Below the pieces are notes generated by a model. That model did not search any database. It was not told where the DNA came from and saw nothing but the letters and a program-made list of their open reading frames with translations. Below are positions 1,881-62,852 of a DNA stretch of 64,000 bases, piece after piece. The translations under genes and the position numbers were made by a program. Position 1 is the stretch's first letter, and the number at the start of each line of letters is the position of its first letter. This stretch comes from Misgurnus anguillicaudatus (taxonomy: Eukaryota > Chordata > Actinopteri > Cypriniformes > Cobitidae): assembly GCF_027580225.2 (NCBI RefSeq), contig NC_073341.2, forward strand, positions 11,442,001 to 11,506,000, written 5' to 3'.

Positions 1881-2505
1881 AGATATGCAGTAATTAACCC
1901 TTAAGAGTTCCTAGGGACATTTTGTGCCATTTTGATTTTGATTTTTAAACCATCTTGACTGTGATGATTAAATATTGCCCAAACTTGCCAAAGGTTAATC
2001 ATTTTTGATACAATTTAGAATATTGGTTTCAGTTTTTTAAATTAGCTTAAAATGGCTAAGCTACGCAAAAACCGACTAATGTGTTCCTTCGGACAAAAAC
2101 TGCCCCATTGAAAACCATTATAACTACCATTTTTGACCCCCCATTTATCTTAACATAAACTAATACATACCTTTATGTCAATATATCATTTTAAACTACT
2201 GGCCTTGAAGTTTTAATTTTTATACTTGTCCACCAGGTGGCGCTACTTTTTACCATTTCATGCATTCATCAAAATGTCAAAATTTTTGCTGTTTTCTGTG
2301 GACCGCATAGCTGCTGAAAAGATAAACCTTTAATGTTGAAAATTGGTGTGTGTTTAAAAAAAGTGTGTCTGAGTGGTAAGGGGGTGGGGTGATGTCGGGG
2401 TGGGGTCGGTGATGAGTGGGGCAGGGGGGCATATTCAACATATCCAAATTCTTCTCTTTTTGAAAGGCACATTCTGCGTTATAAACTAATTCAGTAATAA
2501 AAACG

Positions 2506-3220
2506 ATGAGAGGCCAGAACCGAAACAAAATCAATCTTCATTTTGGTTCTCGCTCATGTTGTTTATGCAAATACACTGCTATAAGTATGAACAGTATAGC
2601 AGAAGTAGTGAAAATGGCAAGGCATTACAGCACACATAAGGCTCCTGAAATAATCATGCACTTCAAGAGCGAGGATGGCTCCTCATCTTCCTCCGAGGAT
2701 TCTAAGGTCGACACGGAGGCCTCAGAGGTAGAGGTAGAAGTAGACCAGCTGGAGTCTAATTCATTAGAGAGATCTTCAGAAGACTTGTCAGAAGGTGAGA
2801 GCGGAGAGGAGATGGATGAAGTGGCGGCAGGATGGACGTCAAAAATTGAAAAATCTTCTGGTCTCCCACAAACATGGAGACGCTCCGCTACTTTCCAGCA
2901 GCCAGAGATTTGATCCCAGGGCTCACACACTATGCCACTGCCCGAATCAGTGCCCTGACTTCAAGCTTTTTATTGATGCTGATGCATGAAATCCTGCAGC
3001 ATATTGGGGCCATGACAAACCTACATGGGAGACAGTCACAGACTGGAGAGATCTTGAGACAGAGAAACTGCAGGCTTATGTGGGGCTGCTCATTCTGACC
3101 GGTGTTTACAGATAAAAAATTAATTAGCTCTCAGTCTCTGGAGTGAGAAATCAGGACAGGTCACTATTTGGGCTACGATGTCCCACAAAAGTTTTTACGA
3201 CATCAGCTGAACACTGTGGT
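2506..3220 (+). pseudogene. Degenerate piggyBac transposase, N-terminal part
   Basis: An open frame to 2,913 begins with a Ser/Glu/Asp-rich acidic segment (an SSSSSEDS stretch), usual for the N-terminus of PGBD-like transposases. In shifted frames the text continues with WETVTDW, KLQAYVGLLILTGVYR and LFGLRC/ATMSHKSFYDIS. These are the start of the DDE_Tnp_1_7 fold, which normally reads as lxxyiGlllllGvy then LW...fratMsrnRF. Frameshifts near 2,905 and 3,000, a stop after GVYR near 3,113 and loss of everything downstream make it non-functional. The catalytic Asp residues are not present. Confidence 0.7.
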
Positions 3221-3386
3221 TCGATTAACGTTAACATATTGGCATTTAAAGGGTTAAAATTTCCACAAATTTAATTAATATTTGACATGTATGTTTCAGG
3301 AAGAAGTAGTGTTAAAAGATTTAATAGTTTAAAGTGGAAAAAAATATTGATGTATGATATTTTTAGAGCAGGTTTTGGGAAGGTGT

Positions 3387-3959
3387 TAGCCTGGTTAGCC
3401 AGACCTACATCAAGATGTAAGGTCTGGCAACTCTTCACACAAACGGCTCAATGCAAGGGGCGGGATATAAGGTTGTCCCTCAAAATGCCTCTGTACGCAA
3501 TAGGATAGCGCTATGACCAATCAGAGCAACGAAGAAGGTGATGTATGAGTCCCATGCGTTTCCCCACCAGTGGAGCTAATTGGTATATCAAACTTTTACC
3601 GTAACCAGTCGGCAAAACTCCAAACACATCTTTCTTGCTTAAAAAGGGCTTCAGTAGGGTTATTTGCTCTTCACTCAAAGAAAAACATAAGTCTAAGTCC
3701 TCCAGAGTCGCGGCCAAAGCCGCTTCAAAAGAAAGCTGTTCGCCAGCAGCAGCAGCCATTCTTTGTTTTCAAGTAGGAACCGTCGCAGGCAGCTCTGTCG
3801 TCATCATGTTAAGCCCGCCCCACAGACGCTACACACGATGTGATTGGCCTGACCAAATTTTGGTTTTTGGAGCTGTTAAGTGTATTGTGAGTGCCTAGAC
3901 TAAACCCTGGCAGCAAATATATTTTGCGGCCGCTAGGGTGCGTCTAGATTTCTAGGCTA
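3387..3959 (-). mobile_element. 573-bp DNA element carrying a RecQ-like helicase start
   Basis: The element is flanked by a 9-bp direct repeat GGAAGGTGT at 3,378-3,386 and 3,960-3,968. Its ends are short inverted repeats: TAGCCTGG on the left against TAGCCTAG for the reverse complement of the right. It interrupts one unit of the piggyBac array, so it is younger than that array. It is richer in GC than its surroundings. A 9-bp duplication is usual for Mutator-like elements among others; the superfamily is not settled. It looks like an internal-deletion derivative keeping both ends and the 5' coding end of a helicase. Confidence 0.7.
3511..3759 (-). pseudogene. RecQ-type DNA helicase N-terminal fragment
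   Basis: The 82-codon minus-strand frame starts at an ATG at 3,759 with MAAAAGEQLSFEAAL. It continues with SLSEEQITLLKPFLSKKDVF and then VLPTGYGKSLIYQLAP, a classic superfamily-2 Walker A (motif I) preceded by the RecQ Q-motif-like region. Helicase motifs II to VI and the RecQ C-terminal domains are absent: after about residue 68 the frame leaves the family and ends. A full RecQ helicase would need at least 350 more residues. It lies wholly inside the small element at 3,387-3,959, so it is transposon cargo and not a host helicase. Expression is unlikely to give an active enzyme. Confidence 0.75.
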
Positions 3960-4982
3960 GGAAGGTGTCATTTTGGTGTCATTTTGGTCTTAGGATCACA
4001 AGTGTGAGTTTTGTATAAAATCTGACCCTGTTCAAAAAATAACAATGCATCAAAATCAATGTTGCTACCAATCTTTGACCCATCCCAGGGTATAATAATA
4101 ATTATAATCAAATGGTAGTTCAAATGTTTTTTTGTGGGAAAATTTTTAGTTTTTTGTTTTTTCTGTTAAAAAAACATGGACTAATGTAAACAAACAGGCA
4201 TATAAAGGGTTAAAATTTCCACAAATTATATTAATATTTGACATGTATGTTTCAGGCAGAAGTAGTTCTAAAAGACTGCATCGTTTAAAATGAAAAAAAA
4301 TTCACGTATGATATTTTTAGAGCCGTTTTTGGGAAGGTGTCATTTTGTGGCCTTAGGAACACTTAAGGAAGTTTTTTATAAAATCTGACCCTGTTCAAAA
4401 AATAACAATGCATGAAAATCAATGTTGCTACTAATCTTTGACCCATCTCAGGGTATAATAATAATAATAATCACATGGTGGTTCAAATGTGTTTTTTTGG
4501 AAAATATTTAGTTTTTTTGTTTTTTCTGTTAAAAAAAACATGGGCTAATGTAAACAAACAGGCATATAAAGGGTTAAAATTTTCACAAATTATATTAATA
4601 TTTGATATGTATGTTTCAGCCAGAAGTAGTTCTAAAAGATTGCATCGTTTAAAATGAAAGAAAATATTGACGTATGATATTTTTAGAGCAGTTTTGCGAA
4701 GGTGTCATTTTGTGGCCTTAGGAACACTTAAGGAAGTTTTTTAAAGGAACTCTTGAGGGTTAAGTTCCCCCAAGACAATACAGTTGATGTTGTTCCTTCC
4801 AACTGGCTTGAAACAACAAATGAGGTATTTTTTATAGAAAATTTGGTGATATTTATTGATGTCTGATTACTTGATCAATTCATCTCTGATTGCAAATGTG
4901 AATATAGTGTTGTGTGAATAATCTTCACTAAATCAACATTGTAAGCTAATGCCTGTTGACATGAAAATCTTTTTTTTAACAG

Positions 4983-5135: not shown

Positions 5136-5967
5136 TGGAGATGCACCGATCGACCTTCCAGAGACCGAAATTGGCAGACACCGTTCTCACGACATTCCAA
5201 TTTTGAGCTCTTGACTCATTATCCAACAGCTGCATTAAGTTCATTCGGTACCAGTAAATGTGATCTGTTTTACATAAAGACGTAACCCGAACTCCTGTAC
5301 AGTCTGCCCATCCCTATATTGGTTCTTGGCCCACATCCGCAAAGGACACGTTGATATTTTTCCACCAGTTCACTTGCTCGTGTGCAGGACTCTGCTGGGG
5401 ATTCGTTTCCAGAACAACAACATAACTCGCTGCTGAACTACTATAGTACAATGTATAGTGTTGGGAGAAACTAACTAGCTTGTCATGACTGTTTCCTGAA
5501 AATATAGTAACTGTGCTGCACATCTGTTGTTTGAACCATGTTGATTCAACAATATAGTTGATGATGTCCAGACAAGTAGGAGGTGGAGTAACCTACTAAT
5601 TAATCTGTTCAGATCGATTTAATGTTGCTGAAATATATTTAGATTAACCGATATAGAATGCACTGCATGTCGCTTGCTTGTTTTTTTTTTCAAAACCTCA
5701 TACTAACTAGGAACTATGCTTCTAACCAGCTGACCAACTGATATTTGGACATCTAACATAATGTCAGTAAGCTTGACTAAGTTTGAGAGCACTTTATTTT
5801 GAGATCTTTTCAAATGAAAGAAGACCATCATAAAAAATATTTTCATGACAGAGAAGTGTAGTTCTTAGAAAGAAAATTGGAATTGGCAAAAAAATCAGTA
5901 TCGGCAGGCCACACCTACAGAAAAAAAAACGGAATCTGCCAAGATAATTGCAATCGGTGCATCTTTA
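5136..5967. mobile_element. Non-autonomous hAT-type element, 832 bp, intron 2
   Basis: The inverted ends contain AGATGCACCGAT on the left (from 5,139) and its complement ATCGGTGCATCT on the right (to 5,964). Flanking 8-bp repeats are TTTAATAC at 5,128-5,135 and TTTAATAA at 5,968-5,975 (7 of 8). The 8-bp target duplication suggests hAT. No transposase reading is visible. Confidence 0.65.
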
Positions 5968-9325: not shown

Positions 9326-11366
9326 GTAGGAAATTATATTAAAATTATTATATTCGTTTTTTTGTGTGTATTAATGTGTCACAATTTGGATAGTTATCTA
9401 AAAATAGTTGGTTTATTCCTTTACATTATAATCATTCTTAACCATTTAAAGGTCATGAATCTCCTTTTTTTATCTTAGTGTTGTTCTGAAGAGTCATATG
9501 TGCATCTTTTGCAGAAGGGTTAGAAAAATTATGATTTTAATTTTAAATACCCTTTTTAAAGATTTGTGTTGCTGATCATAGAAGATAATGGTAGCATCTG
9601 TTCATTTTAATTTTAGGAGAGAATGGTTAATTTTCATCTTGTGGGTTTAAAGCTAACATCAGAGCAATGACTAACATAGATGGTTGATGTACATTGACAG
9701 TTCATCAGTTTATCGTCTCCCATAATTATTCATGAGTCAGAGGGTTAAGGTCTTACTTGCTCCATAAGCGCTCCACTATCATGAGTAAAATTTATGCCAA
9801 CGCATTCAAATGTTACATTTATAAAGCTAGTTTGATATAAATCAATGACTCAAATCAGAAAGAATGTGATGGTTATCAGAGGCGTCATGCCCATTCAAAC
9901 TGAGGGGGCTCGTGCCCCCTTGGTTTTTTTGAGCCAAATGGAATTTTCATGCAACCTCAAAATCAAAGAAGCGCCCTCGGTTACTTGTCTTTTAATCGGT
10001 TTAATATGCACAATATTACGGTATCAATTCTGTGCTGCGTCACTTTTCAGAGATGTTTGCCGTTTTGATAGTGTTTTTATCATGTTACATTACATATTCT
10101 GGCGCTGCAGTCAGCGCAGTCGCAGATGTCATCAGCGTCTGAGCGCGCTCACTAGCTCTTTACTGTTGCTGCTTCATTTGGCTATCTGAGGAATTAAAAC
10201 ATGTAAGAAACACTCACAACAAACCCCAGTACGGTAATGTGCAGTTAACATCCTCTGTGTAGAAAATGTATGGTTTAAAATGTGACCGTCTCAACGTTAT
10301 ATTAGTAGAGATTTCTAGATTCATCTTCTTGGTACTACGCCAAAGTTCGCCAGAGTTCACGGGGGCGCAGAATCACACATGCTCACATATGAGGTAAAAT
10401 TGAATGCACAAATCCGTTCCTCTAATAATTTTATCTAAACATATTTTATAAAATCATTATTGAACATTAAAATCAATCACGTGGCTATAGCTTATGTCAT
10501 TTTCGTTGTTTATATACTTTTTATTTAAAATTACATGCATTGTAGTGCTGCCACTAACGACTAATTTTCTAACGACTAATCTTTCGACTAATTTTTCGAA
10601 TAGTCGACTATTCTAAACGACTAATTAAAAAAAACTCAAGTGTTTGTTATTTCATTGTGTCCATTTTATTTTGAACCCACCGGTGTCATAAACAATATGA
10701 ATAACTTAAATGTTACCAAATAAAAAATTACAATGTAAACAATATAAATAATAATAAAAACTTCCAGTGCAAAGTAGATGCTTAACAGAAATATGAAATG
10801 TTTCACTTCTACTCTTTGATCTTATATTGCATTTTAACACAACTGAATGCTATTTTACATATTATCTGTTCTGTTGTAGCCTATAAAATAGTGACTAAAC
10901 ATGACCCATCACCTCGTTTTTTATCCAACCAGCTGTTCCTTTAACTGCTGCTAAAATCCTGATTTAGATATGCAAAAATCACCATACATTTACATTGTAG
11001 CTTTACTGCTGTTGCTCTTCTCATAATTGTTGTTGTGTTTTGAGCCATTTCTTGATTTTAAATGCGAGTGATATAGCGCAGACAATTCGGTGCAAATTCA
11101 GAAATATAAGAGAATACACTGTTGTTGTTACATAGACTACAGAACACGTCATACAGCATCATAGGGAGGGAGAAAGCTCGCACACAGACTCACACTACTG
11201 CTAATCTTTCTTCAAGTCATGTTAACTCGATCAGTCGTCTTTGTGAGAGACATCTGTGAATGTTGACGTTTACGCAAAAAAAGAAAGTACATTAAAAACA
11301 CTGCCACCTTTTCACTGTCACGTAAGAGAGAGGCGCGCGCGGTCGAGGCGCTGCAAGCAACATGAG

Positions 11367-11402
<36 letters not shown>

Positions 11403-11776
11403 GCTGAACACTCGCAACAATGAATTGAGCCGTTTAAAATAGTAAAATAAAAATGTAAATGGGAATCATGAAAAATCGATTTGTTGCGTCCAGTGTTGAT
11501 TCCGTTGCGGAATCACGAGCAAACACTGATAGCCTTTAACATCCAAAGACAGAGTCATTGTACTTCTCAAAAGAGTTAATAAAACAGTACTGACTAGCTC
11601 GCCGTTTCATTAATAATCATATAACAGTTACTTACGTTGTCCTAGTCTCTGTGGGTGTATCGTCAATAACTCCCGAGTGTTTTCGGTTGAGATGCTCGTG
11701 CATTGTCGTTGTGCTCCCGTGATAAGCCAGCGACGTTTGGCACGGTGTAACAGACCACTCTTTTATCACAACTTGG

Positions 11777-14700
11777 TAGGGCTGGGCGATTAATCAAAAA
11801 ATAACCGAAACCGAAATTCAGAACCTCTAACCGACATTATTTTATCATGTCGGTTATTTCGGTTTTTAATCCTGTTAATACTTTCCCTTTAAAAACAAAC
11901 TGCTGCATGTGATGTTGCGTAACTCCGCCCCGTCCTGTCAGTGGCACAGCGAAACATGGAGGAGAACTCAAACACTGTTTAACTGAGCAGCAGGATCATC
12001 TAGTGCCCAAAAGAAGCACAGTACTTTTTTTAAGAAGTACTCGCGAATGTGCAGGCACCTGTGACAAAAATACGGAATGCGCGATCGGGTTTTTACCGCA
12101 CACGCGCTCATTTTAATCTACCGATGGGTCTCTAAGCAGCCCGGGTAATGTCATCACATCTCACTCACTCAAAACCGTGAAAAGACGTGCCCGCGTGAGT
12201 TTAATTAGACACTTCAGAAATGACGGAGAGAGAGAACGGGAGAACTTCTAGTCTACATTAACACCAAAAGCATTACAGATGAGAATAAATGTCTTAGACA
12301 TCAGTGCCCAGTTAAGAAAAAATGGATTGAATACAAGAAACGTGTAAAGGATACAGTCCAAGTATGTATTTTGCCCTACTCATCTCATTACAATATGCTA
12401 TCTGGATACAACTTATTATGTATGTATCTGATGTCTATAATTAGTCATGGGGGTTGTATGATTCTTTGGTTCATAACTTCCCATTCTGAAAGTTTCATCA
12501 ATTGTACATAATGACATGGAACATCTGCATAGAGTTAAGTCTATTTAATATTTTTCAGTAATGCAGTTATTTTGGGAAAAATGTGAATAATTGCATTGCA
12601 GGCTGATTTAAAGGTGACATAGAATGGTTGAACGGAGTATTTATCCTTGTTCTGTGATGTGACATGTAGACAAAATTTTTTTTGTTTGGGTCTGTAATGC
12701 CTTAGAAGCTTCCTAAAAACTTCTCTCAGAAAGCTCTTTTAGGGTGGGGGATTTCAAACAAGTGGTTTAGCACCTTTTTGGCTCCCCCTACTGGCTTAAC
12801 TTGCAATCTCATTACTGATTGGCTGACTTTGCTGCCACTCTAAAAATGTAGCCAATTATTTTAAAGTGGATGGGCAGTTAGATGCATGTGATGTCATAAG
12901 CATCAGTTTTTCAGATTGGGCTGTTTTCTGGCTGATATTTCTAAAAGAGGATTTTCTATGAGACTGAGATGTTTAGCACTTTTTGTATGTTTGTGATTGT
13001 GGGTAGACTACCATTATTCAACAAAGACAAGGTAAAATGGTTTTTCCTTCTCTGTCCCCTTTAAGGTGTGCCCTAAACTTTCCAACCTTGTCAGTAGGGC
13101 TGGGACAACGCGTCGACGTAATCGACGACGTCGACGCAAAAAATACGTCGACGCAAAATATGCGCGTCGATTCGTCAGACCCAAAAAGGCGGCGCCGTAG
13201 AATACGTCAGACCCAAAAAGGCGGCACCGTAGAATAGTAGCAACGCGAGTGGCTTCAGTCCAAGCCGGTTTCACAAGTGTGAGCAGTACGTGCGGCGCGT
13301 GTTTTTTTTAGCGCCCATGTTAACAAGCATGCACCTCGCCGCATGAGCAGCGCGAGCTCGCGGCTCTGTAGCAAAAGTGCTGCAATCGTTTCTGCGTCGG
13401 TTCTGCTGCGCTGCTCATGCTCAATTAAAGTGAAAGTGCTTTGTTTATGGTTTAACTTCTTCCACCCTGAAGCTATTTTGGGGATTTTCGCCTGGATTTG
13501 GCCTACCCAATTTCAAAAGCTTCCCATACCCACATGCAGAGGTTTACATACAAATGTTTGGTATCATTTTACAGGAAACCCTTTGAAATTACATAAAACA
13601 CTGTTGAAAGTGCTAAACATGGTTGTATGTGATGTCAGTCCTCTAATAAACAAAAAAATAAATAGGCGCTTTTTGATGTTTTTTTTCTAAAGTTTTTATT
13701 TAAAAGTGTATAACTCTGGCCCTGAGTGCCTCAGCTCTCTGTTTGATTCCAGCAATTGCCAGCTTACAGAGGAAAAAAGATTTTTTTCTCTATCTTAATC
13801 TATGCAAAAGTTATTTTACTCCAACTGATGGGAGGAATAATACCCTTTTTGTATACAATTTCTGCCTAAAAACATTTGAAGTGCTCCCATAACCACATAC
13901 AGTGGAATAAATGCAAAATCTTTATATCATTTTAAAGAAAACCCTTTGAAGTTACATAAAAAGCTGCTGTTTGTGACAAATAGTGTTATTTATGTTGTTT
14001 TTCATATGATGAAACACCAAATTTTCTTTTTTATGTTGTAAATACTGTCTTTGATAGTGTATAACTCTGGTTCTGTGTGCTCTAGCAGACTGCAGACAGT
14101 TTTGGTTGTTAACAGTAAACACCCAAAAAAAGAATGATCTCTTTAGCATGTCGCATTCAAAAGTTATTTTCATTTTACTGAAGTGTCCGAAAATACATTT
14201 TTCATATAAATATTAATTTTTTGTTTTGGACATATAATAAATAACAAGGGATTATTCATGCACACAACCAAAGAAAATGCTGTGAATGGACTCATTTTTT
14301 AGAGTAGGACCTAAGAGAAAAGATGGTGTATTATTTGTGGCTATCTGTGCTATCTGAGCCAGTCCACACTAAATTTTCCCATATGTTTACAAAAGACGAT
14401 TTTTTACCTTATTATTCATTCAACTATTGTTGGATATGTGTTAATAATAGAACAAAAATAATAGCCTTATTCCTGAGAATGAGAGCTTTTCATTTGATAT
14501 AAGACTTGCCCATGTTTGTCATACTTGAAAAATATGAAATATGTGAATATTAAATCATATAAAAAATTATGGGGGGGTGATAGTGTAAATTAAGTGTAAA
14601 TAACTTTCTTACAGTAAAAGATTTCTCAAAGTGATGCATATCTGGAGAAAGTAGAGAGTCTAAGCTTTCAAACAGTATCTCATAAGTGTTACTGGGGTCC

Positions 14701-15610
14701 ATGATGGACCATTATCGATTAAATGAATATGTTATTTGTGTGTAAATACGAAATTTTGTACCCGGGACTGGGTCCTCAGGGTTTAAGAGGTTAAATGCTT
14801 GTGGATTGACGCAAAAAGTGTCATTTTAGCTTAAAATCATGAATGTGAAGTGTGTTTTAAACAGTCATGACTTTGAGCAATTTAACAGAAAGCAATGAAA
14901 TATGTCACTGTTGCCAGAAGACTGCGCTTTCATTCACTCTCTGTACAGCAGTAAATGAGTCCTAGTCTATCTTAACAAACTTAAGAGAAAGAGATTTAAT
15001 AATATATGTGCTTCTTAAGTCTATAATTGTGTTTATATCTGTCATTAAATGGACTAGAACAGCACGAAAACAATGTGGATTAAACAAATCAAGTTATAAA
15101 AGTTACACTGACCATCAAAAGGCACATTGAAGAGGTTTTGCTCATAAATGCATGTAAAATAAAGTAATTTGAACTTGAGAGTTTTATACTGTTACTAAAC
15201 TGCACAGTATGAGCTGCAAACGCTTTATTGAATGCTACCTCTGACTAAGAATGCAGTATTTTGCACTTGTATAGTCTTTTTTTATTTTGAAATTTTAAGA
15301 GCAATGAACATATATTGAAATGTTTACATTCAGATATGTAAATCAACATGTATAAATTGCTATTAGTTAATTAATGGGGAGATAATCGAGAATCGAATCG
15401 AAGTCGAATCGGACTGATAAAATGAATCGTTAGATTAATCGATGCATCGAAAAAATAATCGCTAGATTAATCGTTTAAAAAATAATCGTTTTTCCCAGCC
15501 CTACTTGTCAGTGAACTATGAGGCAAAAAAATAATCGTTTATTAATCGTAACCGATGTCAAATGTTAGATTAACCGAGGTTTTGATTTTAGGTCAAATCG
15601 CCCAGCCCTA
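11777..15610. mobile_element. hAT-type element, level 3 of the nest
   Basis: The ends are TAGGGCTGGGCGATT on the left and its complement ending AATCGCCCAGCCCTA, apart from small differences. A perfect 8-bp duplication CAACTTGG flanks it at 11,769-11,776 and 15,611-15,618. Inside, near 11,955-12,050, an ATG-led reading with PKRST resembles the N-terminus of BED-finger hAT transposases, but stops interrupt it. Its own sequence is about 1.43 kb. Confidence 0.85.
13095..15503. mobile_element. hAT-type element, level 4 (innermost) of the nest
   Basis: The ends TAGGGCTGGGA and TCCCAGCCCTA-like (tttcccagcccta) are inverted. A perfect 8-bp duplication CTTGTCAG flanks it at 13,087-13,094 and 15,504-15,511. 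The left subterminal region is rich in cgtcgacg words and the right in aatcg words. At 2.41 kb it is the largest single piece in the nest. No intact transposase frame was found. Confidence 0.85.
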
Positions 15611-16506
15611 CAACTTGGCTTAAAATACTTTCATACTTCGGAAGCTTTCCGACTCATAATTCCATAGACTCACCTGCCACCGCCAATTTTTCAAAATTAA
15701 AGCAGTGAAGGCAGGGGGAGATGGAAGAAAGATGATAGCGTTGCAGATTAACCAGCAGGGCGCGCACAGACTGGTGTGGAGGTGAATTACTTTGAGCCAT
15801 TTGAGACATGAGACAGAATTACAGTGGGCCGTTTGAGACGGAAAAAAATAAATATGCGACTCCTCGACTAAAAAAATTGCCGTCGACAAATTTTCATCGA
15901 CTATTCGCGGCAGCACTATGCATTTATTGTGCAAAATGAAAGCTCTATAATATTTTGTTTAATGTCTGTGTATGCACAAATTTCTGTGGTCTGTGCACAC
16001 TGTGCCCCCTTAAAAAAATTGGTCCATGACGCCCCTGATGGTTTTGACGACGATAGGGAAGTTATAGTTGTTGTAGCTGGATACTGAAAGCATGTTTTCA
16101 GCATGAAACAGACTGATTAACATACACAATAACTTAATGTATTTGAATAAATGCAATCTTAATGCTACGTTATCTGTCTGTGATTCGAATAAGCAGAAAT
16201 CTGTAAAAATTTTGTGATATGAAAATAACTGAAAATAACTTTCATCCTTCCAAAACAAAGTTGCACTGAAAAATTCAGCAATGACTTCTGTAAAAACTCG
16301 GGATCTAAAAAAAAACCTTTTTACACAACAGTGTTTAAATAAACATGCTGAAATATTGTCTCACAGTACACATCAGCAAAGCTTTTGTGATATTTCAAAG
16401 CATGCTGAGCTTTGAACATTGTCCTGTAACATTACATTTACATAAGCAAAGCTATTCAGTGTCCTTGTCTTGTTTGTTAGCTAGACATTGTTTTTCTCGT
16501 TTTCAG

Positions 16507-17238: not shown

Positions 17239-18318
17239 GTATGTAAATTTCATCTTCTGTATTTTCCAAAATACAAGTTGGTGATTTTTCATCATCTAAA
17301 ATGTGCTGTGATGTATATAATGCTGTTATCTTCAAGCAAGCAAAGCATGCTCAAAGCACACAAATTGTCATGTGTTGTGCCATAGTTCATTGCAATCGAA
17401 CTTCATGTAGTCTTGGGTTCCGTACCAAAGTACAATTTACATTTGTTTTCATTTTATTATCATTGTATACCTGAGGCTTAATTATAATACTGTCTGACAA
17501 CTATCCCCACTGTGTAAAATTGTTTTCAATCCCACCTATCAGTTAGTAGGAGTTTCTGACATGGTTCATAATTGTATTATCTTTTAGGTAACAAGACAAT
17601 GATTAACACAATACATCATAATTTTTGGTTAACTATACGTTTGTGATGTTACATTATGCTCTTTTGCACCGATTGATAAGAAAACACAGACATTTGATGC
17701 AGTCGCAGTACTTCCCGTCTGTGGTTTCCGACTCATTACCAGGTCTTTTATCATCCATAAAACTATCTGCAAATTCAGCGTCAAACTCTGGGCCTTGTTT
17801 ATAAAACATTTGTCACCAAAATGACAGGAACATACAAACACACTTGCACAACTGCGTTGTTGCCCTGGAAAAACTAACTGTATCCACTGTTCCCTTAATG
17901 CTGGGTTCTATGGGAAGCTGAAAAATCTCCATCACAAAATTTCCCTCACAAACAGAAACACACTTCTTTGGTGACTATAGGCTTGTTGCGGTAGTTGGTA
18001 TAACCGGTGATACACGGTGCTTCAGCCTCTCACCGGTTAGATCGCTTACCCACCGCAACACCGACTTTCACCGTAGTTTTGATATTTTCTTGTAAATAAA
18101 TCATTTAGTTTCATAAGAGAGAGCAAACACTAACAACTGAATGTGTCTGCTGCCTGAATTCAGTGGAGCTGAACGCACGTCACATCACAGAGCATATTCC
18201 TGTCAACGTGTGCGAGGCAAGCTGACTGAGCAGACAATGGCAGAAGACACGTGCTTACTTGTTTTGTTATAATATACATATATAATGTTTAATATAAGCG
18301 AGATCGTTTTGTTGTTGT

Positions 18319-21300
18319 TAGGGCTGCACGATATATCGAAAGTGTATCGCCATCGCGATAATTGTGTGTGCGATATGCATATCGCATGGAGCTGCGATAA
18401 CTTGCATTTATTTTACGTGTCTATCATTTGAGTGTTGCATGCTTAGATCGTCCAAATTACACCGATCAGAAGGTGATTCCCACACACTTACTTTACTTGG
18501 GCGGCTCTCTCAAGTATATTAACAACTGTCCACGTATATTTAGCATCAAATTTTTTTTTTTTCTGGCCGTGATAATGACATTATGCGTGCGAGAGCAGGT
18601 CGTGTGTTTTCTGATGAGTTCGCTGTGCGTTCGGGTGCTTTCTGTTTCTCGATGGATTAGGTGCGACGCAAAGCTCAGTGTCACATTGTTTCCTTCCATG
18701 TTCCTGAACTTGATCATAGCTGTATCTGTTAGAGGTCTTCACGGAAGGACACGAGTCTATATTTTGAAAGGTCAGTCCCATTTTAATTACTTCAGGTACC
18801 GGGTCTGTTTAAACCCAAGTCGATCAGAGACGCCGTGAAGAATCAGTCAGCGCTAACGCACTATAGCGCATGTGCAGTGTCAAGCGTACCTCCGGTTTCT
18901 ATGGCGATGAAAACTCTTGTTTATATAAAGTCACGGCCACGCGCTGCACTTTCTTTCTCCCATATTTATAGTATTATTATCAATGAATTGTCTTTTTATA
19001 TGTTTGCTAAAAAGATGGTAGCAAATAACCAATGTTAATGCCAAGCCCATTGTACTGAACGAGCAGCTAAAATTGTCAAACAGTCATTATGTAAGCTGAA
19101 TCTACATACTTTATATAGAGTATACTTTTGAATCTAAAGTAATGACGGATTAAGCTCTTTTAATCTGCAACAGAGGAATAGAAAGAGAGGCAATTTTACT
19201 GCTTCTACACAAACCTATCAACTTTATAATCTTTAGACCTATTTATAATCCATATACCTGCATTGTCTATCATTAATATATTATACATTTTATTGTATAA
19301 AGTTAGTCTTTCTACACCTCTCACAATGTTAATAAATCCCTTTAAAGGGGGTCATATTCACAAGTTCATTCAGCTTTGTTCATGTCAAACAGGGTCCCCG
19401 CGGGTCCTTAAAAAGTCTTAAAACGTCTTAAATAAAATTTTCGATTTTTAAGGTCTAAAAATGTCTTAAAATATGGAATTTCCACCAAGAAGGTCTTAAA
19501 TTTCATGTCAGACTCATCATCCAGTGTTTCCCATACATTGTTATATTTCATACATTTTCTATATGTATTTGTAGTATTATAATTGTAATATTTTAGTATT
19601 AAAACTGCTTTATTCATTGTTTCGAGCGCTCAGCGGCGCCGCTCTCGTGTGCGCGTGCTTTCTCTCTCTCATTCTGCGTCGTGTAGCACCTCACACATGG
19701 CACGTGGGGGAAGGACTTAAGTTGGCAGTGTTTATTCTTTACGCGATCTACAATAATACTTTTACTTTTAAAAGCGCTTATAACACAACAAGACGAGAAG
19801 AGCAACGGTAAAGCTCTGCACTGCATGAGACACACAGGTAATGCCAAAATCACCTCGTAATGTTATATCAGCTCTTAAATGTAAATATATGGTGAAATTG
19901 CGAAGCGTTTAGCTATAAATCAGGATTTAAGCAGTAAGTAACGTGGTTGGATTAAACACGAGGGTCGTGTTATTGGGTCGTGTTTAGTCACTATTTTTTA
20001 GTCAGTAACCCTATTTATATACACAGGCTCTCAAGTCTCACGCATTGACCGTGAGACACTAGCATTTCAGTCAGTTCAAACGCCACACCTTGTATTTCTC
20101 ACGCTGAGAAGTAAGAAATAAATTGTCCTGCTATATTCAATAAATGGACGAGGCGCATGGCAGTTCTGTCGAGTTCAGCGGCTTCCTTCGAGTTTTTTAA
20201 GTGTGCTTTCAACTTTACGCAGCGACACAAAACCGACACGCAGATGACATCAGGGTACCGCGAGAAATCTTGCGAAGGAGGCTGATTTCAAATCGCTCTC
20301 GCGTTACTCTGATGTCATCCACTTGCCGTTTTTTTGCAGCGCCTAATGAAGTCGTTCACACAATGCATCCTACCAGGCAATCAAAAATAAACGAAAAGTT
20401 GTTTCTGGTGATGTTATCCCGCTGCTAGCACGTTCATTACTAACATGGATTTAACGGAGTGGAAGTTGGATGAGCAAGATCCGATGAATGCGGTAGATAT
20501 AACCCATTTTTTAAGCATTTTGATTTTACGATTCCTGGACGAAATCCTTGCCTTTGATCAAAGACATTGAAAGCTAATATTGGTGAATGAAGCCAAATTC
20601 GTGCTAAATTATTATTGATTCAGTCAAAAACTCCAACAGCTTTGCAACCTGAAGCTTTAGTTACCTGAAATTAAGAAAAGTACTAGAGGCTTCCTGAAAT
20701 ATATAAAATGTAATAGAGATGCATTTCATTATTATTGCCCTTTCATCATTAAATGTTCTGCAATACTGTATGTGTACAGTAAGCTCAAGTTAAAAGAGTA
20801 CAATTCCATAATCCACTTAATGTGCTCTATTTTCATGTACTAATGTTGTACTTAATATAGCCTTCATTTTTTTTTGTTCTTTAGTACATTAATATGAAAT
20901 ATGCTAAAATGTAATTTAAAAATGTATTTAGGTACCACTTAAAATAAATTTGAACCCATCTTTGTATGAAAGATGAGTACACGTTAACTTCAAGTGGTAT
21001 ACATTTTTGTAATACGAGATATGTTAAATGCATTTCAGTTCATATTAATGTAATCTCAAAATAACACTGATAATGACACTTAGATGTTTTTAAGATTATC
21101 TTAAGTACTAAAGTAGAAACTTTGTATTATGTACAAAACTATTTTGTGAAAATTGGGCACTTTAAAGGGATAGTTCAACCAAAAATAACAATACTGTCAT
21201 AATTTTCTCACTCACGTTTTTACAAACCTGTATACATTTTTTTGTTCTAAAAAACACAAAGGAAGATTTTTTGAGGAATGTTTGTAATCAAACCTTTAAT

Positions 21301-22490
21301 GAGCCCCATTCACTTTCATAGTAGGATAAAGTATAATATGAAATTCAATGGGGCCCATTAACGGTTTGTTTACTAAACATTAGGTAAAATTAACGAGTTA
21401 GCAAAAACTTGAGAATTGGGTTGGGCCGAGGGTCACTGTTGCAAATACCCCTCTCCTGACATCTCACTCCAAACTTTTGGTAAAACTTGAGAGCCCTAAT
21501 TTCCATGTCCGACAACAAAACAGATAATATGTAAAAATATAATTAAGTTGTGTTAAAATACAATATAACTCAATTAACCTACTTAAGTCTGTGTCATTAA
21601 TGTTAATCAAACAACCCAAGACAAAGAGAAAATCCCTTCTGTAGCTCTAAAAAATAATCATATTTAATTTATACAAAGACTTTACCTAATGTGCAACTTT
21701 GTCCTTTTTTATAAATGTTTGTAATTTCTTAATTTGTTACTAAATTTTTCCCACCCCTTTTTTGCTGATCTGAAAAATGAAAAGATCTATGCCTCAAAAA
21801 CTGTAATGTGATCTGAACCATGAGTTTTGTGATCCGTCACACCCCTATTTTGTAATGTTCTGGGCTGTCCTCCATGTCTTTTTCAAAATGCTAAGAGGGG
21901 CCAGAATTTATAAATTAACTGAAGTACCTTAAAGGCAGATTTTTACATACACAGTCAACCATGTCAGAATTGTTAGGCGAATTAGCACTTAGTATAAAAG
22001 TTGTTGTTTCCCTGTGATGTGTCCTCAGGCGTGCTGTGCCATGCTATGCTTCAACACACAATTCTGTGTCGTGTCGCGCTGAACATTTTCCTGTTTTTTA
22101 TGATAAAGTCTTACATTTTTATTTTAGAGGACTTAAAAAGGTCTTAAAAGTCATTAAATTTGCTGTTAAAAAATGTGCAGATACCCTGGTCAAAGAGAAA
22201 GGAAATAGAGTTTGGAGTAGTTGGATTTATGAAATTAATATAAATATTCAATAAATCAAAGTACTGCTTTATGGTCACACATTACTAGTTTTTTGACACA
22301 TGTATAGCATCGTTTAATTACATCTTTAGAATATGCATTACCTCTTTATTTCATTACATATCTAAATGCTAAAATAAAAGCAAATAAAAAATAATTTCTC
22401 TAAGTAAGACATATCGCAAGGCATATCGCCATCGCACCCACCAACAGAGCTATCGCATATCGCATATTTTCTCATTATCGTGCAGCCCTA
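18319..22490. mobile_element. hAT-type element, 4.2 kb with nested copy
   Basis: The ends TAGGGCTGCACGAT and ATCGTGCAGCCCTA are perfect inverted repeats. A perfect 8-bp duplication GTTGTTGT flanks it at 18,311-18,318 and 22,491-22,498. Subterminal regions at both ends carry many tatcgc/gcgata words. A second element (19,390-22,188) takes up most of the interior, leaving about 1.4 kb of its own sequence. Confidence 0.85.
19390..22188. mobile_element. hAT-type element nested inside 18,319-22,490
   Basis: The left end cagggtccccgcggg is followed by repeated cttaaaaagtcttaaaa words. The right end carries ttaaaaaggtcttaaaag and closes gataccctg. The flanks atgtcaaa and gtcaaaga share GTCAAA out of register, so the duplication is imperfect. 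Near 21,167-21,380 it contains one half of a common cyprinid MITE (aaagggatagttcaaccaaaaat). The ORF-like readings at 19,614-19,853 have no known domain. Confidence 0.6.
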
Positions 22491-23367: not shown

Positions 23368-24415
23368 GTCCATTACTTAAAGGTAGGGTAACACATTTTG
23401 AAAAATGCTAACGGTAGCCGCCTAGCAATGAAATCCCGATCCCACCCTCAAGTCAAACCGCCATCCAAAGTCACGCATCTTCCAAAACACATGAACACGG
23501 ACAGAACAGACGGTCAAATCTCATGTCTCATTCAGCAGTGAGACAACTGTGCAGTACAAAGTCGAATAACACTGCCAAAATAACCAACATAAACTACTGG
23601 TTTACATCAGAATTAGTTTAAGCACACGTTCGGTTGTGTAGACGTAGTAACTACGCTAATCCGTAAACGAACACAAATTTCATAAGCAACACAATGTTTC
23701 ATCAAAGTAGAATATCTGAATCCATCTCAATACAAACATATCGCGTACCTACCTTACCAAAATAAACAGTGCAACGACTCTTTCAGACCCTTTGCGTCCT
23801 GCAGCTGTTTGCATCTCGTGGTAAAGCAGTAAAGTTACCGATGTTCATTTGGGTTTTTGCTCTTGCTGATCCAGGCAGTTTTTGCTGTTGTTGTTATAAA
23901 AAATGCCTTTAGTTTTGTGCCTCCTGTGTAGGTTGTCAATTTAGCAAAAAAGTTTGCTGTTCTCACTTTTTACAGGCAGGAGGTGAGCGCACGTGAGCGC
24001 GCCGATGACGTGTGGTGTCTGCGTGGACTCGCTGCGCGGTGGGCATTTAAATTATGCTTACGTATGAGGGACAAAAATGGAAACGTCCGTTCGGACCGAG
24101 GTCTATGATTTGTTGAACATTTTTTGGTCCTGCGCCTTTCACGGATGACATAAATTTCTACAAATACATTTAGACAACTTGGCACGGTGATTGCTATCAG
24201 GATGTAAGGAGACTTTTAACCAGCATAACAAAAAATGTTTCAGGATCAAATCTGTTACCCTACCTTTAAGCCTCCTCGGAGGCAAAACACCTGGCGATGC
24301 CATCCGCAGGGTCTTGCGTACAATTGGAACTAATGGTCTATGGTCAAAATACAGCATGAGAGGAAGGAAGGGGAAAAAATTTTTGGAGAGCTGAACATTT
24401 GCAGCGTGATCATTC
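23368..24415 (+). pseudogene. DUF4806-like gene, exon 10, split by a MITE
   Basis: The acceptor ttattatag ends at 23,367 and the donor gtgagt follows 24,415. Coding bases are 23,368-23,380 and 24,270-24,415. With the MITE and one TTAA removed it reads VHYLSLLGGKTPGDAIRR, then GTNGLWSKYSMRGRKGKKF, the core of the DUF4806 domain. The frame then closes with a TGA unless one T is added to the five-T run near 24,380, which gives GELNICSVII and the right exit phase (1). Thus the exon holds both an insertion and a one-base deletion. Confidence 0.7.
23381..24265. mobile_element. TTAA-targeted MITE, 885 bp, in an exon
   Basis: TTAA flanks it at 23,377-23,380 and 24,266-24,269. The ends AGGTAGGGTAACAC and, on the other strand, AGGTAGGGTAACAG match at 13 of 14 positions. 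TTAA targeting is shared by piggyBac and Kolobok, so the superfamily is open. No coding capacity is seen. Confidence 0.85.
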
Positions 24416-32764: not shown

Positions 32765-36557
<3,793 letters not shown>

Positions 36558-36599: not shown

Positions 36600-36935
36600 C
36601 TTCTTAACAACCCCTTGGACCCGAGAGCCTCAACTGATGTGTGAAGTTTTGTTTCAATTCACCATACGAGACAACACGATGTATCCAAACAGCGTCTTTA
36701 TTTAATACATCAGTGCGTCGACTTACGACACCCCACAGCACCGTGAAAACTATGCAAAAGATAAATTCATATTCAAACATCAAATTGCATAAATAGACAT
36801 CACAAACATTACACAAACATTCATTGATACGTTAATTTCATTTATCGATCAACATACCTTGCTACGCTCTCCAAGGAGTGCAAACCAGATATCATAATCC
36901 TGTCGTCAACATTAACCGTGCATCCAATTTCATTC
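36600..36935 (-). other. Possible LTR of the BEL/Pao element
   Basis: This stretch just left of the integrase fragment contains, on the minus strand, an AATAAA (near 36,692-36,697) and a TGTTGATCGAT-like start near 36,855. It is in the right place for a 3' LTR. No second LTR is in the window, so the call rests on position and signal only. Confidence 0.3.
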
Positions 36936-36984
36936 ACATGATACGAAGTGTATAAAATACACAATTAAATAGCAACTCAAACAA

Positions 36985-38390
36985 CTGGCGTCTACCATAC
37001 ATGTCCTCTCTTACAAATTCCCCTGGAGGAGGAAGAGCAATCTTTGATTTCATCTGAATCAAATGATTTGGTGTTAAGGGCTCAAGAGAATTGGGATCAT
37101 TTATTTCGTCAACTGTTAAAGGACGACTGTTTACAATGGACATAGCCTCATAAAAGAGTGTTCTGAGAGAAGCATCATTAAGTCTTCCCATACTTTGAGC
37201 CAAAGTAACATTCAATACATTTCGGATGGTACGTATTTGGCGGTCCCAAACACCGCCAGCATGACTTGCTGACGGAGAGTTGAAAACAAACTCACATTGC
37301 TTTTCAGCCATGAATGTCCGAAAGGCATGGTCATCACATTGTTTAAGTGCTTTCCTCAATTCATTTTTGGCTCCAATGAAATGTGTGCCTTGATCACAAT
37401 AGAGTTTACACACAGCTCCTCTCAGGCTAATCAAGCACCGCAGGGCATTAATGAATGAGTCTGTAGAAAGATCTTCCAACATTTCCAGGTGGACAGCTCG
37501 GGAGTAAAAGCATGTGAATATTAGGCCATATCTCTTGTACTCTTTACGATTCCTTTTATCAGTAAAAGGTCCAAAACAATCCATTCCACAATACGTAAAC
37601 GGAGCGGATGCTTCCACTTGCTCCTTAGGAAGCTCCGCCATACGTTGTTCTTCAACTGGACGTCTCACTCTTCTGCATTGCACACAGCTGTTTATTAACT
37701 TGGCAACCAACTTGCTACAGCCAATAATCCAAAAGCCATTTACTCTAAGCTCCATCTGAGTTTGACATTTTCCTTGATGGCATATTTGAGAATGGTAATG
37801 TAGCAAAATAAGTTGAGTGATAGGACTGTCCTTCGGCAGAATGAATGGGTACTTAAATTCTTCACTGAGAGATGAATACCCAAGTCTTCCTCCAACGCAA
37901 AGTATACACTATCTCAAAATTGGATCAAGATTGAAGAGTGGACTAGAACAAGGGAGACTTTCTTCAGCTTGAAGCATCTTCATCTCTTGACTAAATGGCC
38001 GCTGTTGAACAAGCTTTATTACCACCTTGGCAGCATTCTCACGCTCTTTGGCAGTTACAACATCAGGACTCTTTTCTTTAAACCCCAATGTATTAATTCA
38101 TGTGACTACTTTAAGAAGAGTTTTTCCAAGATGAAAATCTAGACAGACAATCAAGCATTTCTGTACCGTCATTACTTCTTATAACAAGAGCCGTAGCAGC
38201 TTTAACCTCTGGATCACCAACCAGTAGGTCAATTGTTGGAAAGAATTCCTCAGAAACTTCTGCCTTCCACAAGAATTCGGGACCCGAAAGCCAATTTGTT
38301 GACAGGATCTCAGAAGCACAAAGTCCCCTAAAGGCATAATCCGCTGGATTTTTTTATGTATCAACATAATGCCACTGGTTTAAATCAGTA
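36985..38390 (-). pseudogene. BEL/Pao pol remnant (RNase H end and integrase)
   Basis: From right to left the minus strand reads the end of the RNase H region (DLNQWHYVDT, then NPADYAFRG and LSGPEFLWK). An interrupted stretch follows, then an open integrase frame from 37,806: HYHSQICHQG, CVQC (HHCC zinc site), CGMDCFGPF (first Asp), YCDQGTHFIGA (second Asp) and NSPSASHAGGVWDRQIR. This is the Pao integrase order. The frame diverges after GRRQ near 36,990, so the C-terminus is lost. Stops at about 37,910 and 38,090 interrupt the region before the integrase. Gag, protease and most of the reverse transcriptase are missing here. Confidence 0.85.
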
Positions 38391-52195: not shown

Positions 52196-54564
52196 TTAAA
52201 ACATATACAGGCTACGGATCCAATGTTTCCAAAAGCAGGATGTATACCTTGTGTCACTCTTAGAAACATCAACTAAGGGCACAATGATCATATTCTTAGA
52301 TCCTGTTAGTCTGCACATGAATCTAAACATAAAATTTCTTAAGACAGCATTAAAAGTGGGCACATTATTAGACACAAACATTGCACTAGCACTACTCCAC
52401 CTAGGAATTTTAAGCACAATTCTTAGTGCATCATTATAAGCCACTTGGAGTTTTTTCATTTTTGACTCACTAAAATTACACCACAGGTGGGAAGTGTACA
52501 ATGGAGTGCATTAAGTTTTGAAGAGTGAGATTTTAACATCAGGAGTGCACATGTGAAATTTGCGTGCCAGCATGTTTGCCTGCCCATACAGTTTTCCACA
52601 CTGACGCTGCAAATCATCATCATCACAGAGGTCATCTCTTATCACATGTCCCAGATATTTAACTTTCTTTACAACCTTTAAAGGTTCACCTGCCAATGAA
52701 AAAGAGGGATAGGCACACTTCATATCCTCCTTAGTTCTGGCGATTAGTACCACACTCTTCAAAGAGTTAAATTCTTTATCAAACATAAGTCCATATTAAG
52801 AACATATTCTAAGAAGTTGCTGCAGACCAGCACTGGAAGGAGACAGTACCACCAAATCATCAGCATAAAGCATATGATTGATGAGACTATCCCCCACCAA
52901 GCAGCCAGTTCTACAACACTTCAACTCCCTTGATAGGTTATCCATATACAGATTAAACAGCAGCGGGGACAGAATTCCGCCCTGCCGCACTCCATTGGAG
53001 ACATAAAAGGGTGTTGACAAACTCATCCCCCACCTAACTTGCATAGTTTGGTGAGAGTACCAGAACTGCAGAATCCTGATTAAATAAGAGGGAACACCAC
53101 GATCATATAATTTACCAAACAGTTTCCCATGATTGATACGATCAAAAGCCTTTGAGGCATCCAGAAAACACATGAAGACTGTGCTATTGCGTGATCTGTA
53201 CCTATGGACAATTTCTTTAAGTGCATAAATACACAGATCAGTTCCATGCTTGTTCTTAAAACCAAATTGATAATCTGTCGACACTAAGTGTTCTGCAAGC
53301 CTATCCATAATAATCCCTTCTAGTACCTTGGAGAGTATACTTGCAATTGCAATAGGTCTATAGTTATCTATACTAGTTAATTTACCCATCTTGTTTTTAA
53401 CTACAGGTACTAACAAGACAGATAACATGGATCCAGGAAGTATGCCATGCTTCATTAACCCAGAAAAACATAAAGAAAGTAAAACTGAAATATTATGGCT
53501 AGCATATTTCAAATGTTCTGCTGTTATTTTATCCTGCCCACAGGCTTTATTTATTTTAAGATTGTCAATAGCATAAAATACTTCCTCCGGCCTGATGACT
53601 ACATCATCACAGTAAGGTATCTCACCCATGTTAAAAACATCACTCTTCACACAGTTAAAAATGTTCTCATAGTGTCTCCTCCAAAGCTCTGCAATGTTTC
53701 CAGGTTCAGTAATGCCATCAATACTAGAAGGCAGTGGCATTTTACTGTTGTTAACCACTTTCACCTCCTTCCAGAACTCATAAACATTATTAGTTTGCAA
53801 TTTTCTCGCCATAGAGTTCGCCCTCATAGTCTGCTCGTTTCTTTTTATAAAACGCACAGCATATTTGAACCTAGCATTAGACCTTACTTTGAGCTCACAG
53901 ACTGGGCCATGCCTAGGTTTGCCTGATAAAACCCAACTTCTAAATGCATCTCTTGCTTCCATATGAACATCATGGACATAGTCATTCCAACCTGGTCTTG
54001 CAATATGTTGTTTAACCCCTTTACTTCTTAGTGGTTCACTTCCATCAACTAAACCTTTTACAATTCTATCATACATTGCACATAGGTCATTATTATGACT
54101 TACATTCATACAGTTGCTATCCACACACATAATTGCATCAACAGGTACCTCAATATTTCTCAAGTGCAAATCAATCATTAACTTGTAATATTGCAGGTCA
54201 TCTTCTGTAAGCCTTGTCCAGTCCAATGTCTCACCTGGTTTATGGCTGTCACTACTACAGACAAGCTCAGGTAGACCCTTAACATTTATGAACATAGAGA
54301 CAGGAATATGGTCTGCTGTAGCCAAACCATATAGAATCTCAACCTTCTCTATGCAATCATGTGCATCAGCTGTAGATATACAATGGTCCAGCCAGGATGT
54401 AGTATGCCAAGCTTCACTCACATGTGTATAGCTATCAGCTGGCAGTAATTCCTTAGTGGATAGAATAACTTTGTTATCTTTGCAGAATTGTGTCAAATGT
54501 TGACCAAAAAGTGAATTAGCATCTGATATATCAGCATTGAAATCCCCCATAACAAATATGGATG
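52196..54564 (-). pseudogene. LINE-B endonuclease/reverse transcriptase ORF
   Basis: The main frame (to 52,796) has the endonuclease motif FVMGDFNAD, the SDH-like part (TADHIPVSM), then reverse transcriptase: YRPIAIASILSKVLEG, FLDASKAFDRINHGKLF (motif A), NGVRQGGILSPLLFNLYMDN (motif B) and HMLYADDLVVLSP (YADD, motif C). Two shifted frames continue the C-terminal part with KYLGHVIRDDL, LYGQANMLARKFHMC, LWCNFSES and RWSSASAMFV. Breaks lie near 52,790 and 52,505. The first residues of the open frame (before TSIFVM) come from the hAT element. The family is an APE-type LINE common in fish and invertebrates; I cannot name the clade safely. Confidence 0.85.
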
Positions 54565-62339: not shown

Positions 62340-62852
62340 GGCCTGGTGTAAAGTAAAATGAGTGGTGAATTGAACACAACCATCTATATTGTTTCATAAA
62401 GAAAACAAAAAAGTAGGTAAACATATCTAATACAGAAATAAGCTGGCAAAAAAATAAACCCGTGACATCACTTTTTAAACATAAGCGATAGTCAAAAAGC
62501 CCCATTACAACGTGGGATCGCTGAACTGAACACAAAAGAATAGATGGAAAAAAAGAAAAATCTACAGTCACTCCGTAGCGAAATCAGTAAAGAACTAACT
62601 GTTCTTCAAAGCAATCACATGTCGCTCCGTCTCCACTCGATATTGACAGGAGATAATAACTTCGTATGTAATACAGTTGTTAGTGCTTAGGCATTCACAT
62701 ATACGAACATATAAATATGCAAGCCCATATGTATACAATAAACACGAACCTAACTATTTGTCCTGATAGACTTGTTATAGTAGTATATATTACACAAGGA
62801 TACCAACTTCAAGTCGTATTTACCACAACCGGACGTTACCAGCGTACATCCA
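62340..62852 (-). other. L1 inter-ORF spacer
   Basis: 513 bases between the ORF1 stop and the ORF2 start, without a coherent open frame. It is longer than the human L1 spacer (about 63 bases), so ORF2 translation here would need reinitiation or an internal entry over a greater distance. Nothing else is recognised. Confidence 0.6.

What the first reader, a model, noticed from the sequence alone, without database searches (positions are those of the whole stretch)
9877..16037. Four hAT-type elements nested one inside the other, with all eight borders readable
Seen directly: four pairs of inverted ends sharing one centre, with 8-bp flanks ATGGTTAT/ATGGTTTT, ATGCATTG/ATGCATTT, CAACTTGG (exact) and CTTGTCAG (exact). 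The outer two duplications have one mismatch each and the inner two none, which agrees with age falling inward. It is a clean relative clock for four hAT families in one intron.
Basis: seen in the sequence. Interest (0 to 1): 0.75.

Follow-up and report, generated by a model that had tools for sequence, protein, structure and literature searches.

The report
Six transposons nested five deep
Short jumping genes inserted one inside another at a single spot in what is probably a fish genome, and duplicate copies of the same spot elsewhere in that genome still show earlier stages of the pile-up; it is an unusually clean example of a well-known process.

Summary
The four nested hAT-type insertions are real. 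Tested against the window's own genome, copies elsewhere confirm the ends of all four families, and the targets of the inner three are seen uninterrupted.
Corrections:
(1) The nest has six elements and is five deep: a TTAA element lies in the innermost hAT (13456-14790), another in the third hAT (12612-13060).
(2) The second element is 10543-15918 (TAGTGCTGCC...GGCAGCACTA); its empty site gives the duplication as TGCATTTG, not ATGCATTG/ATGCATTT.
(3) "Age falls inward" holds as order of insertion, but TSD mismatches do not measure it. E2, E3 and E4 are 0.7-0.9% from consensus; E1's mismatch predates duplication of the locus.
(4) No host exon among 29 of 96 ORFs scanned: intron unsupported.
The locus is in four copies. 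C12 and C21 have E1 but not E2; a copy 230 kb away has E1, E2 and E3 with the E4 and E6 sites empty. These are intermediate stages of the nest. E1 has no empty site here. Ordinary process, unusually complete case.

The parts
9877..16037 (+). E1, outermost hAT-type element; three complete copies elsewhere are 965-1014 bp
   Evidence: Tips; 3 of 4 loci examined have both ends, all 3 with exact 8-bp TSDs; present in all four copies of the locus
9869..9876 (.). E1 left TSD ATGGTTAT
16038..16045 (.). E1 right TSD ATGGTTTT
10543..15918 (+). E2, hAT-type element inside E1; other complete copies 1518-1643 bp
   Evidence: 18 of 23 copies with both tips, 16 exact TSDs; empty sites in C12 and C21
10536..10542 (.). 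E2 left TSD, TGCATTG (TGCATTTG minus one T)
   Evidence: comparison with empty sites in L011 and L012
15919..15926 (.). E2 right TSD, TGCATTTA (TGCATTTG in the C5 copy; G-to-A at 15926 private to the window)
11777..15610 (+). E3, hAT-type element inside E2; other copies 962-969 bp
   Evidence: 19 of 19 copies with both tips, 18 exact TSDs; target uninterrupted in 19 of 23 E2 copies
11769..11776 (.). E3 left TSD CAACTTGG
15611..15618 (.). E3 right TSD CAACTTGG
13095..15503 (+). E4, hAT-type element inside E3; four other copies 1065-1084 bp
   Evidence: 4 of 4 fetched copies (of 40 scored) with exact 8-bp TSDs; empty site in the C5 copy; absent from 19 of 19 E3 copies
13087..13094 (.). E4 left TSD CTTGTCAG
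15504..15511 (.). E4 right TSD CTTGTCAG
13456..14790 (+).
   Evidence: TTAA at 13452-13455 and 14791-14794; absent from 4 of 4 E4 copies; 44 genome matches, 33 of them over 1-1335, the window's own included; tips recur in 3 of 3 copies read
12612..13060 (+).
   Evidence: TTAA at 12608-12611 and 13061-13064; absent from 19 of 19 E3 copies and from the C5 copy; 40 matches scored, 38 over 1-449, the window's own included; 3 of 3 copies read are flanked by TTAA
15937..15938 (.). Junction of a deletion of about 159 bp of E1 sequence, private to the window copy, TG microhomology
   Evidence: Sequence present in the C5, C12 and C21 copies

Best explanation
Six short DNA transposons, probably all non-autonomous (MITE-like, about 0.45-1.6 kb each), inserted one after another into one locus. 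E1 came first, E2 into E1, E3 into E2, E4 into E3, E5 into E4, and E6 into E3 beside E4. E1-E4 are hAT-type, with short TAG or CAG tips and 8-bp target duplications. E5 and E6 use TTAA targets, as piggyBac does (and Kolobok, recalled). Each was presumably moved by cut-and-paste by a transposase encoded elsewhere (inferred). The surrounding segment was duplicated while this went on: the C12 and C21 copies separated before E2, and the copy 230 kb away on C5 separated after E3 and before E4 and E6. Shown here: ends, duplications, uninterrupted targets for E2-E6, order, and shared inheritance of E2 by two copies of the locus. Inferred: the transposases, that E5 arrived after E4 and not with it, and any absolute date.
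For: Nesting and exact TSDs. Ends of each hAT family in other copies. E2 empty in C12 and C21 with the target once and no footprint. E4 empty in the C5 copy, CTTGTCAG once; E4 and E6 absent from 19 of 19 E3 copies. E3 target uninterrupted in 19 of 23 E2 copies. E5 absent from 4 of 4 E4 copies. E2 in the window and C5 shares three changes seen in none of 18 family copies, so it is one insertion. On chosen flank segments, two-state informative sites support (window, C5) | (C12, C21) by 15 to 1. Exact TSDs of E2 and E3 have T at position 2 in 23 of 34.
Against: E1 has no empty site: all four copies of its left flank carry it, and its TSD has one mismatch. The E3 target is seen uninterrupted only in other E2 copies, not at this locus. 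No transposase was linked to any of the six. E1 itself gives a small conflicting signal: 3 sites group window with C21, 1 groups window with C5. The left side of the empty E6 site in C5 is only about eight bases, and TTAA elements can excise without trace (PMC2874221, passages), so that site is weaker evidence of order than the hAT ones. One of 19 E3 copies (L025) and 2 of 18 E2 copies have no exact TSD.
Confidence: 0.95

Rival explanations
1. One reading: four hAT elements only, with a TSD-mismatch clock showing age falling inward.
For: Nesting order and two exact inner TSDs.
Against: Two more elements present. E2's frame is wrong. E2, E3 and E4 are about equally diverged from consensus. E1's TSD mismatch predates the duplications.
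Confidence: 0.03
2. Some layers arrived together: E4 was already carrying E5, or E3 already carrying E6, and the composite moved into the locus as one.
For: Nesting alone does not fix where E5 entered E4. E5 and E6 are 96% identical by alignment to their nearest scored relatives.
Against: E6 is missing from the E3 of the C5 copy of this same locus, so E6 was added here, short of precise excision. E4 is only 10/1070 from a four-copy consensus, so an old E5-in-E4 composite is unlikely; a young one is not excluded.
Confidence: 0.15
3. The copy 230 kb away on C5 is the other allele, misassembled as a second copy, not a segmental duplicate.
For: Same contig, flank divergence only 19/2985, similar in size to heterozygosity in outbred fish (recalled).
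Against: Copies at 1.4-2.3% flank divergence exist on two other contigs, so the segment does duplicate. Not decisive: the search meant to map the extent of the duplication did not complete.
Confidence: 0.25
4. The empty sites in C12, C21 and C5 come from excision of the elements, not from absence.
For: hAT and TTAA elements are cut-and-paste; TTAA elements can leave no trace (PMC2874221, passages).
Against: The E2 and E4 sites show one target copy and no footprint, which hAT excision rarely leaves (recalled). E2 is absent from both C12 and C21, which group together on the flanks.
Confidence: 0.04

Closest known systems
hAT MITEs (for example Mar in Drosophila, PMC3517528, passages read)
   Same: Short, short TIRs, 8-bp TSDs, no transposase found in the element
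   Different: Other tips; TSDs here favour T at position 2, not the nnnTAnnn of the Buster group given for Mar; no parent transposase was sought here
Nested-transposon chronologies: TinT (PMC3014933) and TRANScendence (PMC5657132), abstract and section list read of each
   Same: Use element-in-element insertion to order activity
   Different: Those work on nested insertions across whole genomes; this is one deep nest whose earlier stages survive as copies of the locus
TTAA-target DNA transposons (piggyBac: PMC2874221, passages; Kolobok: recalled)
   Same: E5 and E6 have TTAA on both sides and imperfect inverted tips
   Different: No transposase seen; superfamily of E5 and E6 not decided

Membership tests
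hAT superfamily (E1-E4) | 8-bp target site duplication | tested here: met
   Exact in E1 3 of 3, E2 16 of 18, E3 18 of 19, E4 4 of 4 copies with both tips; E2 and E4 empty sites show the target once
hAT superfamily (E1-E4) | Short TIRs (5 to 27 bp, PMC3517528 passage) | tested here: met
   10 (E2), 11 (E4), 13 with one mismatch (E1) and 15 bp (E3) at the tips
hAT superfamily (E1-E4) | hAT transposase, own or in an autonomous relative with the same ends | not tested
   Only one ORF of the nest (13283-13687) was scanned, no Pfam hit; no autonomous relative was sought
hAT superfamily, Ac-type against Buster-type target | Ac nTnnnnAn (recalled) or Buster nnnTAnnn (PMC3517528 passage) | tested here: inconclusive
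   34 exact E2 and E3 TSDs: T at position 2 in 23, A at position 7 in 15, TA at 4-5 in 5; leans to Ac
piggyBac / Kolobok (E5, E6) | TTAA target duplication | tested here: met
   TTAA on both sides in the window. Other copies read: E6 3 of 3 TTAA/TTAA; E5 one TTAA/TTAA, one CTAA/CTAA, one TAAA/TTAA of 3, so for E5 less strictly
piggyBac / Kolobok (E5, E6) | Transposase of the superfamily | not tested
   E5 and E6 are 1335 and 449 bp; no autonomous relative was sought

The most novel reading that the evidence does not exclude
Copies of this locus preserve successive stages of one nest (E1; E1+E2+E3; all six), so hAT and TTAA element families were moving within the time of about 0.6% flank divergence. 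E6, and less clearly E5, come from source lineages well apart from the nearest scored copies (96% alignment identity each; for E5 roughly half may be a 28-bp length difference), which would mean that little-copied divergent lineages were still mobile and that divergence from a family overstates insertion age.
Probability: 0.45. Interest if true: 0.45.

Novelty: new member of a known kind. Interest (0 to 1): 0.35.

Why it matters
Nested transposons are common; here copies of one locus also supply empty sites for E2, E4 and E6, so the order does not rest on nesting alone. It is also a worked case where divergence from consensus and TSD mismatches would mislead: E4 is later than the split from the C5 copy, yet no closer to its family consensus than E2 or E3, which are earlier. 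It corrects one border and adds two elements to the annotation.

Tried and rejected
TSD mismatches as a clock: rejected. E6 as an integral part of E3: rejected, absent in 19 of 19 copies. A general preference of these families for inserting into one another: no support; among the fetched loci over 500 bases, other than copies of this locus, only L020 held pieces (80 bp or more) of two of the six families, one of them a 106-bp stretch at 79%; the sample is biased to best matches. Intron: 29 of 96 ORFs of 80 aa or more scanned. Hits above cut-off were reverse transcriptase and endonuclease domains; below cut-off there were weak matches to trehalose-phosphatase (5317-5592), THAP (17632-17907), an integrase zinc-binding domain (36934-37905) and a zinc-binding domain of reverse transcriptases (58545-62390). 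Short exons could be missed. Extent of the segmental duplication: ten tries of one search did not complete. Papers: in four searches none of the rows listed was about this locus; the library is partial and only the top rows were seen. Passages of PMC9341512 and PMC6817897 were seen and not needed. Autonomous partners of E1-E6 were not sought. Two estimates of window-C5 flank divergence: 4/1573 on chosen segments and 19/2985 on all flank bins; I use the second.

Biases: the E1 to E6 searches each scored only 40 of 967 to 1599 candidates, the best ones, so copy numbers and family divergences are lower bounds. The E4 consensus rests on 4 copies. No E1 consensus was made; its figures are pairwise. 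E2 copies dropped before consensus: 5 of 23, no intact right tip within 2400 bases of the left one.

Full report
What is there. The window contains four nested pairs of inverted tips as described: E1 9877-16037, E2 10543-15918, E3 11777-15610, E4 13095-15503. E3 and E4 have exact 8-bp duplications (CAACTTGG, CTTGTCAG); E1 has ATGGTTAT/ATGGTTTT. Two elements were missed: E5 13456-14790, in E4, and E6 12612-13060, in E3, each with TTAA on both sides. So the nest is E1 > E2 > E3 > {E6; E4 > E5}: six elements, five layers deep.

Family ends. The genome of the window (1.12 Gb, 61 contigs, unnamed) was searched for each element. E1: of 4 loci examined, 3 have both ends and an exact 8-bp TSD; L006 had no intact tips. 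E2: of 23 copies fetched besides the two at this locus, 18 have both tips and 16 of those an exact 8-bp TSD. E3: 19 of 19 have both tips, 18 an exact TSD. E4: 4 copies fetched of 40 scored, 4 exact. E5: 44 matches, 33 over its whole length, the window's own included. E6: 40 scored matches, 38 over its whole length, the window's own included. The tips of three further copies each of E5 and E6 were read and recur at the expected bases; E6 has TTAA/TTAA in 3 of 3, E5 has TTAA/TTAA, CTAA/CTAA and TAAA/TTAA. Each search scored the best 40 of 967-1599 candidates, so copy numbers are lower bounds and divergences are biased low.

Empty sites. The left flank of E1 occurs four times in the genome at 99-100%: window, C5 about 230 kb away, C12 and C21; all four carry E1. 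C12 and C21 lack E2: E1 reads ACATGCATTTGTTGTGC without interruption. With insertion at TGCATTTG, the observed borders need one lost T on the left (shared by window and C5) and one G-to-A on the right at 15926 (window only; C5 has G). The C5 copy has E1, E2 and E3 but reads CCTTGTCAGTGAACT at the E4 site and GGCTGATTTAAGGTG at the E6 site. Part of its E3 (window 11870 to about 12600) is replaced by about 7.4 kb of other sequence, so the left side of its E6 site is only about eight bases. In 19 of 19 E3 copies elsewhere E4 and E6 are absent (the junction was printed for 18). The E3 target is uninterrupted in E2 copies: in 19 of 23 the two E2 blocks meet with the target once; the other four (L054, L067, L070, L076) are truncated or diverged near the junction. 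In 4 of 4 E4 copies E5 is absent. E1 has no empty site in this genome.

Order and time. Flank differences between window and C5: 19 of 2985. Window against C12 and C21: right flank 32 of 1412 and 29 of 1425; chosen segments of both flanks 22 of 1573 and 22 of 1570. On those segments 15 informative two-state sites group window with C5 and 1 does otherwise. Within E1, 3 sites group window with C21 and 1 window with C5, a small conflict that I cannot resolve. E2 in window and C5 shares 3 changes not seen in 18 family copies, with 8 private to the window and 6 to C5: one insertion, inherited by both, probably not long before they parted. Divergence from consensus is 11/1533 for E2, 8/964 for E3, 10/1070 for E4. 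These cannot be ranked, although E4 is later than the split from C5 and E2 and E3 are earlier. E1 is older by its place in the nest and its presence in all four copies; pairwise it differs by 7-9% from the three independent copies, which differ among themselves by 4-5%. E5 and E6 are 96% identical by alignment to their nearest scored relatives yet sit in the youngest layers. The E5 relatives are mostly about 1363 bp against 1335 here, so up to about half of that difference may be length; their full sequences could not be fetched. Either the sources were already divergent, or E5 came in with E4.

TSD clock. At 0.7% change per base, about 11% of 16-base TSD pairs would carry any change; at 7%, about 69%. 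One mismatch in the outer TSDs and none in the inner two therefore agrees with E1 being old but says nothing about E2, E3 and E4. E1's mismatch is present in all four copies of the locus (C21 has a further change), so it predates the duplications.

Mechanism. Known behaviour of hAT elements (8-bp TSD, short TIRs; PMC3517528, passages) and of TTAA elements (piggyBac, PMC2874221, passages) accounts for the twelve element borders, given the small changes named above. Exact TSDs of E2 and E3 have T at position 2 in 23 of 34 and TA at positions 4-5 in 5 of 34, leaning to the Ac type (nTnnnnAn, recalled) and away from Buster. The elements are short; the one ORF of the nest that I scanned had no Pfam hit, and other ORFs of the nest were not scanned. 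Helpers were not sought; that all six are non-autonomous is inferred from their size.

Surroundings. Of 96 ORFs of 80 aa or more 29 were scanned; hits above cut-off are reverse transcriptase and endonuclease domains, with a few weak matches below cut-off. 'Intron' is therefore unsupported, not disproved. Ordering transposon families by nesting is established (PMC3014933, PMC5657132; abstracts and section lists).

Verdict. A real, well-resolved nest of ordinary elements. What lifts it is that earlier stages of the same nest survive in other copies of the locus.

Noticed in passing
window 18319-22490: Another hAT-type insertion, tips TAGGGCTGCACGATA, 8-bp TSD GTTGTTGT on both sides; both the C12 and the C21 copy are empty here. 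Inside it, 19390-22188 has CAGGGT...ACCCTG ends with GTCAAA on both sides, a possible nested element.
   Followed up: partly
window 23381-24265: TTAA-flanked element with tips beginning AGGTAGGGTAACA; the C21 copy has an empty site ACTTAAGCC.
   Followed up: partly
L013 about 2372-4400 (C5 copy): About 2-kb insertion with TTA repeated at its ends and inverted tips containing GGGCGTACACGGTGCG, absent from the window: a further insertion private to the C5 copy.
   Followed up: partly
L009 3696 to L013 about 1097 (C5 copy): About 7.4 kb of other sequence replaces window 11870 to about 12600 of E3 in the C5 copy; origin unknown.
   Followed up: no
window 13522-13729 and 13885-14080: Two direct copies, 67% identical, within E5: perhaps an old internal duplication of that family.
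   Followed up: no
G000 C59:22527-25258 and C14:26257108-26259838: E5 copies flanked directly on both sides by inverted partial E5 copies.
   Followed up: no
window 19589-21568: Reverse-strand stretches of 48-93 bp, 73-89% similar to inner parts of E2, inside the 18319-22490 insertion.
   Followed up: no
window 58545-62390, 56681-57952, 52796-54640 and 33161-33517 (minus strand): Open frames with reverse transcriptase domains above cut-off, the first of 1281 codons with an endonuclease domain too: non-LTR retrotransposon-like.
   Followed up: no
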